A stretch of DNA of 64,000 nt, taken from a virus. Shown in pieces: positions 36,150 to 37,022 of this stretch. The notes beneath the pieces were generated by a model, which saw only the letters and a list, made by a program, of their open reading frames with translations, was not told the origin of the DNA and did no database searches. Every line of letters begins with the position of its first letter. Within the stretch, counting starts at the first letter, position 1. A program made the translations under genes and the position numbers. The stretch spans positions 46,923-110,922 of IMG/VR virus record IMGVR_UViG_3300032516_000009; one strand, written 5' to 3'.

Positions 36150-36881
36150 ATGGGGTATCGAACTTGGACAGATAAAGATCTAGAGTTAGCGGTTAAATCA
36201 AGTAAGACCAAATCAGATGTTATTCGTAAACTTGGACTAAAATCCAATAGTTCTGGTAATTTTCAGGTTATCGACATCCATATTAAACGACTCGGGTTGG
36301 ATATAGCACATTTTCACGAAGTCGTATTAGGAAAACCTAGCAAACCGAAACAGATTGAGGATTTATTAATTAAAAACAGTACTTATACAAATACTGGAAA
36401 ACTCAAGTCTAGATTAATTAGAGCTGGTCTTCTTAGAGAAGAGTGTTATGAATGTAAAACAACCACATGGATGGGTAAAAAGTTATCTCTACAACTTGAT
36501 CACATAGACGGTGATCGAAGTAATAATGAATTAAACAATCTTAGACTGTTATGCCCAAACTGTCACTCTCTAACATCAACTTATTCCCGTTCCCGTACTA
36601 AAATGCAGAATAAACTATCAGAAAATAAGTGTAAATGCGGAGCATTTATTTGTCGGCGTTCCAGCATGTGTATTACTTGTGATGCTATTTCTAGGAGAGG
36701 TAAAAATTTAAAAATTAAATGGCCAAACATGAAAACATTACTAAATATGGTGGAAGAAGCCGGATATGTTCAAACTGGTGTTAAATTAGGCGTTTCGGAT
36801 AGAGCCGTAAAAAAACATATTCTCAGAAATAACAAGAACTGCGCACCGAATGGCAGTAGAAAATTGACAGTACCCGAGTAA
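36150..36881 (+). CDS. HNH homing endonuclease with C-terminal HTH
   Basis: 243 residues. N-terminal DNA-binding segment (LELAVKSSKTKSDVIRKLGL), HNH core (CYECKTTTWMGKKLSLQLDH, DGDRSNNELNNL, LLCPNCHSLTSTYS), CxxC ribbon, and C-terminal HTH (YVQTGVKLGVSDRAVKKHIL). Its last codons overlap the P1' strand of the permuted-tRNA element at 36.87-37.02 kb on the other strand, so coding and RNA structure share DNA there. Confidence 0.85.
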   Translation: MGYRTWTDKDLELAVKSSKTKSDVIRKLGLKSNSSGNFQVIDIHIKRLGLDIAHFHEVVLGKPSKPKQIEDLLIKNSTYTNTGKLKSRLIRAGLLREECYECKTTTWMGKKLSLQLDHIDGDRSNNELNNLRLLCPNCHSLTSTYSRSRTKMQNKLSENKCKCGAFICRRSSMCITCDAISRRGKNLKIKWPNMKTLLNMVEEAGYVQTGVKLGVSDRAVKKHILRNNKNCAPNGSRKLTVPE

Positions 36882-37022
36882 TGAAGCTGGATCTTTGACA
36901 GATTGAATATCTGTTGCCTTACCATTAGGCTATTCCCCCATTGTAGAGTCAGATGACTCGGCGGGGAAAGGGGACTCGAACCCCCATAGCTTTTGCTTGT
37001 GAGCTTCACGTAGTGGGTACTG
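36868..37022 (-). ncRNA. Permuted tRNA inside a structured RNA element (copy C)
   Basis: Read 5'-3' on the minus strand: P1 CAGTACCC, P2 GTGAAGCT, GCTCACAAGCA, tRNA 3' half (T arm GGGGGTTCGAGTCCCCT, acceptor TTCCCCG), hairpin GAGTCA/TGACTC, tRNA 5' half (GGGGGAA, D arm GCC..GGC, anticodon arm ACAGA/TCTGT with loop TATTCAA), then P2' AGCTTCAT, ACTCG and P1' GGGTACTG. Both helices are 8 bp (P2 with one G-U). The acceptor halves pair except at 1-72. The anticodon would be TTC (Glu-like) with A33. Confidence 0.65.

What the first reader, a model, noticed from the sequence alone, without database searches (positions are those of the whole stretch)
36868..37022. Second permuted tRNA with the same layout (copy C)
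P1 CAGTACCC/GGGTACTG and P2 GTGAAGCT/AGCTTCAT enclose, in order, a tRNA 3' half, the hairpin GAGTCATCTGACTC and a tRNA 5' half. Linker hairpin type, element strands and position of the break (variable region) are the same as in copy D, although tRNA bodies and helix sequences differ. Two independent examples make chance rearrangement unlikely. The acceptor has one mismatch at position 1-72. The HNH gene at 36.15 kb ends inside P1', which couples the two.
Basis: partly seen in the sequence, partly recalled or inferred. Interest (0 to 1): 0.88.

Follow-up and report, generated by a model that had tools for sequence, protein, structure and literature searches.

The report
New RNA clamp around phage tRNAs
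In large-phage tRNA gene arrays there is an undescribed two-strand RNA element that clamps whole, truncated or back-to-front (permuted) tRNA genes, and copy C is a genuine permuted tRNA held by it; permuted tRNA genes were known only from a few algae and one archaeon.

Summary
Confirmed and extended. Copy C (36867-37023, minus strand) is a real circularly permuted tRNA. It folds as P1, 5x5 loop, P2, T arm, acceptor, linker hairpin, D arm and anticodon arm (z -6.0). After rotation ARAGORN calls it tRNA-Glu(TTC). It is one of eight copies in the window of one RNA element; shuffles give 0.05. The element is P2 (8 bp), then NNCUC, then P1; and P1', 5 nt, P2', N, ACA(A/C)GC. I found 89 copies, 55 permuted and 34 in intron-like order, almost all in tRNA arrays of 28-529 kb viral contigs. 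Every P1 and P2 pair covaries. No Rfam family covers the element itself, and 257 Gb of bacterial and archaeal genomes hold almost none. Permuted cassettes carry V-region- or D-loop-permuted tRNAs, whole tRNAs, acceptor-truncated tRNAs and short hairpins. Best reading: a retained RNA clamp replacing the missing covalent bond of a permuted tRNA, as in two-piece tmRNA. Rivals: a splicing signal sealed by RtcB (present in 11 of 26 contigs), or tRNA decoys. Structure and family are firmly supported; the mechanism is inferred. The HNH gene merely overlaps.

The parts
37015..37023 (-). Copy C: P1' strand (GCAGTACCC)
   Evidence: 9 bp with 36867-36875 in the MFE fold; covaries in relatives
37010..37014 (-). 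Copy C: 3' side of the 5x5 internal loop (ACTAC)
   Evidence: 5 nt in 41 of 51 copies, first base mostly A
37002..37009 (-). Copy C: P2' strand (GTGAAGCT)
   Evidence: 8 bp with 36881-36888
36995..37000 (-). Copy C: conserved ACAAGC motif
   Evidence: ACA(A/C)GC invariant in both alignments; the copies were selected with it, and helix-only scanning finds it or ACATGC again
36962..36994 (-). Copy C: tRNA 3' half (AAAAGCTAT leader, T arm GGGGG-TTCGAGT-CCCCT, acceptor 3' strand TTCCCCG)
   Evidence: sequence; fold; rotated ARAGORN call
36940..36961 (-). Copy C: linker CC-GAGTC-ATCT-GACTC-TACAAT between tRNA 3' and 5' ends
   Evidence: fold; C74-C75 signature seen in 10 of 21 permuted copies
36898..36939 (-). 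Copy C: tRNA 5' half (acceptor GGGGGAA, D arm, anticodon arm ACAGA-TATTCAA-TCTGT)
   Evidence: fold; rotated ARAGORN call Glu(ttc)
36889..36897 (-). Copy C: A-rich tether CAAAGATCC before P2
   Evidence: A-rich, ends in C in most copies
36881..36888 (-). Copy C: P2 strand (AGCTTCAT)
36876..36880 (-). Copy C: 5' side of internal loop with conserved CUC (TACTC)
   Evidence: CTC invariant in both alignments; helix-only scan also finds rare CTT
36867..36875 (-). Copy C: P1 strand (GGGTACTGT)
38016..38176 (-). Copy D: second V-region-permuted tRNA in the same element (P1' 38170-38176, P2' 38157-38164, ACACGC 38150-38155, P2 38028-38035, CTC 38023-38025, P1 38016-38022)
   Evidence: fold z -4.24; scan; rotated ARAGORN call
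25040..25166 (-). Copy A: normally ordered tRNA with the element (25065-25114) between variable region and T stem
   Evidence: scan; R1 match at G000:71987-72040
23048..23183 (-). Copy B: normally ordered tRNA with the element (23073-23124) after its variable arm
   Evidence: scan; R1 match at G000:69995-70050
23390..23511 (-). Copy E: element around a tRNA with a shortened acceptor stem (ARAGORN tRNA-???, 23416-23488)
23201..23305 (-). Copy F: element around a 50-nt non-tRNA cargo with two hairpins
25169..25259 (-). Copy G: element around a 32-nt cargo with hairpin TACC-CTGCTAA-GGTA
   Evidence: score 37, the highest in the window
24315..24418 (-). Copy H: element around a 53-nt cargo containing ATTCC-CTCATAA-GGAAT, anticodon-arm-like

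Best explanation
Copy C is one member of a new phage RNA family: two short strands that pair into P1, a 5x5 loop with invariant CUC, and P2 of 8 bp, followed by ACA(A/C)GC. SHOWN: the element exists, covaries, and appears either as a hairpin inserted in tRNA V regions or as two strands bracketing a cargo. SHOWN: C's cargo is a tRNA whose halves are swapped. INFERRED: the element stays in the mature RNA as a clamp tethered by A-rich linkers. In the permuted copies it holds the two halves together at the V region, in place of the missing covalent bond. The real tRNA ends are made by cutting out the linker at the acceptor (RNase P on the 5' side, 3' processing and CCA completion on the other). 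The product is a two-piece tRNA, comparable to two-piece tmRNA. What the conserved loops bind is unknown.
For: Covariation at all 13 and 14 pairs, with controls. P1 averages 9.3 bp when its two strands are not linked and 6.1 bp as a closed hairpin, as a clamp would need. C folds as predicted. C74-C75 follows the discriminator in 10 of 21 V/D-permuted copies (1/16 expected, P = 2e-7) and CCA in 4, so the swapped acceptor ends keep tRNA 3'-end signatures. Insertion sites are those that tolerate extra arms (V region, D loop, acceptor end); none seen in anticodon or T loops. No single cut position gives a normal V region: A-rich tethers of about 7-14 nt would remain. Two-piece tmRNA from permuted genes occurs in bacteria and phages (PMC9004378).
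Against: Some permuted tRNAs have acceptor stems closed by a 4-nt loop (UUCG, GAAA), leaving little room for end processing. Acceptor-truncated and mini-hairpin cargoes do not need a clamp to be tRNAs. Copies A-D have anticodon loops without canonical U33 or with 8 nt, whereas ARAGORN-called neighbours have U33 in 32 of 37, so ordinary decoding is doubtful. No RNA data were available.
Confidence: 0.42

Rival explanations
1. Splicing signal. The element is a functional analogue of the archaeal bulge-helix-bulge: a nuclease (or the RNA itself) cuts in the loops on both strands, and RtcB seals the exons. Intron-order copies give linear tRNAs; permuted copies give circular intermediates that are opened at the linker.
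For: The same element occurs in intron order and at permuted junctions, as with BHB in algae and archaea (PMC3978253). RtcB in 11 of 26 contigs; in long contigs usually within about 40 kb of the array. Some internal symmetry: each strand carries a similar C-(U/A)-(C/A)-G stretch just 3' of P2.
Against: No tRNA_int_endo homologue in 14 contigs. No consistent cut restores a canonical V region. No copies in anticodon or T loops. Acceptor-truncated cargoes are not restored. RtcB near tRNA arrays is also explained by tRNA repair, and RtcB-bearing named phages lack the element (stricter filters).
Confidence: 0.3
2. Decoys. The permuted, truncated and mini cargoes are stable tRNA mimics that soak up tRNA-cutting host defences; the clamp and sealed acceptor protect them from exonucleases.
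For: Closed acceptor stems with UUCG or GAAA loops; truncated acceptors and anticodon-arm-like mini cargoes; non-canonical anticodon loops in A-D; phage tRNAs are proposed to counter tRNases through loop changes (PMC10264068).
Against: CC/CCA signature at many permuted acceptor ends; some cassettes hold complete tRNAs with encoded ACCA (L042 2404); many cargoes have ordinary U33 anticodon loops.
Confidence: 0.17
3. Processing or protein-binding signal only, for example an RNase III-type site separating units of the tRNA transcript, with no role in joining halves.
For: P1 plus a 5x5 loop plus P2 is a roughly 20-bp interrupted duplex; cassettes are packed head to tail between tRNAs.
Against: Cutting the intron-order hairpins would break tRNAs with normal ends; invariant CUC and ACA(A/C)GC are more specific than RNase III sites (established knowledge).
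Confidence: 0.08
4. Chance rearrangement or pseudogenes left by homing (HNH) activity.
For: HNH genes adjoin C and D.
Against: Covariation, 89 copies in many contigs, 8 copies versus 0.05 expected in this window.
Confidence: 0.01

Closest known systems
Circularly permuted tRNA genes of red/green algae and Thermofilum (BHB junction)
   Same: tRNA 3' half - linker - 5' half; a paired junction element also found in introns; linker at the acceptor (PMC3978253)
   Different: No BHB: 8-bp P2 between a 5x5 loop and an unpaired ACA(A/C)GC; break in V region, D loop or acceptor; hosts are phages without a splicing endonuclease homologue; element also surrounds non-tRNA cargo
Two-piece (permuted) tmRNA
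   Same: Permuted gene in bacteria and phages, linker between acceptor 3' and 5' strands, halves held by base pairing (PMC9004378); a weak tmRNA_permuted match covers the acceptor-linker region of one permuted tRNA in L147
   Different: Here whole elongator-type tRNAs with D and anticodon arms, no tag reading frame, and a conserved dedicated clamp at the break
Group I introns and permuted intron-exon constructs
   Same: Strands at both ends of a permuted unit bring the ends together
   Different: About 25 nt per strand; far below group I size; no Rfam group I match in the window
Phage tRNAs with altered anticodon loops (van den Berg et al. 2023)
   Same: Phage tRNA arrays with non-canonical anticodon loops
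   Different: That work describes no permuted or clamped tRNAs in the passages read

Membership tests
Circularly permuted tRNA genes | 3' half precedes 5' half and together they give a cloverleaf | tested here: met
   Fold; ARAGORN calls C and nearly all V-permuted copies only after rotation, 0 on shuffles
Circularly permuted tRNA genes | BHB motif at the junction | tested here: not met
   Junction is P1 / 5x5 loop / 8-bp P2 / ACA(A/C)GC, no 3-4-3 BHB
Circularly permuted tRNA genes | Circular intermediate and mature tRNA made in vivo | not testable with these tools
   No RNA data
Two-piece tmRNA | Permuted tRNA-like domain with acceptor linker | tested here: met
   C and D layouts
Two-piece tmRNA | Tag-peptide mRNA domain, no anticodon arm | tested here: not met
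   Anticodon and D arms present; ARAGORN finds no tmRNA in the window
Two-piece tmRNA | Halves remain unligated | not testable with these tools
   Needs RNA
Group I / group II intron | Rfam-recognisable catalytic core | tested here: not met
   No match at E up to 10 in the window or up to 1 in five related arrays
Any Rfam 15 family | Model match over the clamp element itself | tested here: not met
   Matches near the elements are tRNA-type models on tRNA bodies, none models the clamp

The most novel reading that the evidence does not exclude
The element is a compact RNA-joining device of phages, self-cleaving or recognised by an unknown dimeric nuclease and sealed by phage RtcB, that splices tRNA insertions and circularises permuted tRNAs and small RNAs: a third kind of tRNA splicing besides group I/II introns and BHB.
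Probability: 0.28. Interest if true: 0.96.

Novelty: categorically new. Interest (0 to 1): 0.87.

Why it matters
Permuted tRNA genes were reported from six algae and one archaeon only (PMC3978253). Here they occur repeatedly in phages of bacteria, with a junction element that is not BHB, is covariation-supported, and also brackets whole tRNAs, truncated tRNAs and mini-hairpins. It is either a new way to hold a tRNA together, a new splicing system, or a new class of tRNA decoy. Each bears on why large phages carry long tRNA arrays, and each is directly testable on RNA. tRNA finders miss these genes.

Tried and rejected
Linker-hairpin pattern CCGAGTCNNNNGACTCTAMA in viral contigs: 5 chance hits, so the linker is not the conserved part. 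HNH protein as a handle on relatives: none confirmed. Known ribozymes: no Rfam match and no recalled consensus fits. Restoration test for splicing: cutting at P2/ACAAGC or at GC leaves 8-19 nt V regions with no common rule, so exact splicing is not supported but not excluded. Pairing of the GC of ACAAGC with an upstream GC (P3): holds at acceptor-type copies, not at many V-region copies, so it is not part of the core. Named jumbo phages (Bacillus phage G, Atu_ph07, FLC9, CcrColossus, Gurke, Viktualia, Muenster and others): no R1 match in 10 records; stricter filters were used, so this is weak. Literature: eight searches found no permuted tRNA in phages; no separate preprint collection was held. 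Caveat: copies were collected with helix and motif thresholds, which inflates percent paired; the slid-partner controls, the helix-only scan, the R1 hits outside the training loci (G010) and the shuffles are the independent support.

Full report
WHAT IS THERE. The window is 64 kb of a 110.9-kb IMG/VR viral record with 38 ARAGORN tRNAs, all on the minus strand. An endolysin-type protein, an adenylosuccinate synthetase relative, HNH genes and a DHH phosphoesterase fit a tailed phage. Read on the minus strand, copy C runs: P1' GCAGTACCC, ACTAC, P2' GTGAAGCT, C, ACAAGC, AAAAGCTAT, T arm, acceptor 3' strand TTCCCCG, CC-GAGTC-ATCT-GACTC-TACAAT, acceptor 5' strand GGGGGAA, D arm, anticodon arm ACAGA-TATTCAA-TCTGT, CAAAGATCC, P2 AGCTTCAT, TACTC, P1 GGGTACTGT. 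The unconstrained RNA fold gives precisely this cloverleaf with P1 and P2 (z -6.02); copy D gives z -4.24. ARAGORN finds no tRNA in C's cargo as it stands. After rotation it calls tRNA-Glu(ttc); 20 sets of shuffled cargoes give none.

THE ELEMENT. T-loop scanning exposed further orphan tRNA parts. Aligning them by eye with C and D showed a rigid two-strand element: [P2, 8 nt]-NNCTC-[P1] on one strand, and [P1']-5 nt-[P2', 8 nt]-N-ACA(A/C)GC on the other. A scanner for this finds eight copies at score 25 or more in the window against 0.05 in dinucleotide shuffles. Six are permuted: C, D, E 23390-23511, F 23201-23305, G 25169-25259 and H 24315-24418. Two are in intron order: A (tRNA 25040-25166) and B (tRNA 23048-23183).

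RELATIVES. A T-arm-anchored pattern in viral contigs brought in loci with several copies each. A stricter intron-order pattern gave 15 loci in viral contigs and only 10 in 257 Gb of bacterial and archaeal genomes. The model R1 accepts just two of those ten, L156 and L157, both MAG contigs. In all I hold 55 permuted and 34 intron-order copies, though some contigs are near-duplicates. R1, built from 31 intron-order copies, matches all 16 phage records searched whole, mostly within one array per record. These include sets it was not trained on, for example six hits at 156.6-157.8 kb of a 529-kb contig.

COVARIATION. For 31 intron-order copies RNAalifold, given no structure, returns P2 8 bp, 5x5 loop and P1; all 13 pairs have double-sided changes. 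The covariation score is 0.754 against 0.284 shuffled and at most 0.24 for slid partners. For 36 permuted copies (strands rejoined with an artificial GAAA) the score is 0.948 against 0.271 shuffled and at most 0.17 slid. Selection by the scanner inflates percent paired. A helix-only scan without any motif requirement still recovers the same loci with CTC (rarely CTT) and ACAAGC/ACACGC/ACATGC. P1 is longer when its strands are not joined by a loop, 9.3 against 6.1 bp.

CARGO CLASSES. (i) tRNAs broken in the V region and permuted: C, D, L025, L082, L039, L040, L042, L058, L029, L074, L088, L106, L136, L143, L145, L147. (ii) One broken in the D loop (L025 1729). (iii) Whole tRNAs, including one with encoded ACCA (L042 2404), and tRNAs whose acceptor stem is cut to 2-7 bp and starts at the GC of ACA(A/C)GC. 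(iv) One tRNA without an anticodon arm (L088 657). (v) Hairpins of 18-53 nt, two of which (G, H) look like anticodon arms. No copy was seen in an anticodon loop or T loop. These classes were assigned by inspection.

LINKERS AND ENDS. Acceptor linkers are 4 to 32 nt. Four are tetraloops: TTCG, GAAA, TCCG and GCTC. Yet C74-C75 follows the discriminator in 10 of 21 permuted copies and CCA in 4 (P = 2e-7 and 3e-4 against uniform bases). Ordinary window tRNAs show CC in 10 of 34. The acceptor borders were set by hand; in C the border depends on the 1-72 mismatch.

ANTICODON LOOPS. A (TATTTGCA, 8 nt), B (CATACAA), C (TATTCAA) and D (TCTTTCAA, 8 nt) all lack the canonical 7-nt loop with U33. ARAGORN-called neighbours have U33 in 32 of 37, and 122 of 128 in other arrays. 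ARAGORN may be biased against odd loops. This leaves ordinary decoding by A-D in doubt.

PROTEINS. RtcB occurs in 11 of 26 element-bearing contigs, many of them fragments, often within tens of kilobases of the array: for example 13 kb in a 377-kb contig, 11 kb in a 323-kb contig and 19 kb in a 437-kb contig; in one 452-kb contig it is far away. About 1% of phage records have a tblastn match to these RtcBs (651 of 50,697). No tRNA_int_endo homologue was found in 14 contigs. RtcB could seal spliced tRNAs but equally could repair cleaved ones. The HNH gene 36150-36881 overlaps C only through its last codons and stop in antisense, and packed arrays in relatives leave no room for such a gene between cassettes.

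MECHANISM. Shown: the element, its covariation, its two topologies and the permuted tRNA. Inferred: the clamp is retained. Three points favour this. The element sits only where tRNAs tolerate extra arms. The A-rich tethers of about 7-14 nt would remain in the tRNA under every fixed cutting rule I tried. And two-piece tmRNA is a precedent for a permuted RNA kept together by pairing in bacteria and phages (PMC9004378). Splicing with RtcB sealing is the main rival, because intron-order and permuted copies sharing one junction element is exactly the BHB pattern (PMC3978253). Decoys are the third reading, because several acceptors are capped and several cargoes cannot be charged.

NOVELTY. No Rfam 15 model covers the element. 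Known permuted tRNAs are from six algae and one archaeon and use BHB. A 2023 survey of natural RNA permutations lists none in phages in the passages read (PMC10085705). Eight searches of the held library found no report of permuted phage tRNAs; subscription papers and most preprints are outside it.

Noticed in passing
window 34944-34961 (-), with HNH ORF 34974-35486 (-): An orphan T arm and acceptor 3' strand (GCGGGTTCGAATCCCGCCAGGGGCA) right after an HNH-like ORF; its 5' half was not located. Possibly a tRNA split by a homing-gene insertion.
   Followed up: partly
window 6555-6571 (-): Orphan T arm (GTGGGTTCAAGTCCCAG) directly after tRNA-Leu(caa), no 5' half found.
   Followed up: no
window 37907-38007 (-): Weak Rfam tRNA match of 101 nt immediately downstream of copy D, with an insertion in the variable region unlike the clamp element.
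   Followed up: no
window 37028-37097 (-) and 35914-35982 (-): Two tRNAs missed by ARAGORN: a Glu(TTC)-like tRNA with C at position 33, next to copy C, and a Pro(CGG)-like tRNA.
   Followed up: partly
L143 minus strand 3472; L144 4011: Element-bearing tRNAs with stop-reading anticodons: ARAGORN calls the rotated L143 copy tRNA-SeC(tca), and L144 has an 8-nt loop containing TTA.
   Followed up: no
window 4120-5286 (+): Relative of phage 2-aminoadenylosuccinate synthetase (phrog_1211, E 1e-45); the phage may use modified adenine in DNA.
   Followed up: no
L039, L140, L145 and L147 intron-order copies: Several intron-order tRNAs share an unusual D arm with a longer GC-rich stem and a very small GG-containing loop, unlike the permuted ones.
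   Followed up: no
G002, G004, G006, G011, G014, G020, G023, G024: A distinct RtcB type with a 469-488 aa open frame is shared by these element-bearing contigs; two others (G001, G008) carry a 388-403 aa type.
   Followed up: partly
L157 (3.1-kb MAG contig): Three element copies in a contig binned as a deltaproteobacterium, probably a phage fragment.
   Followed up: no
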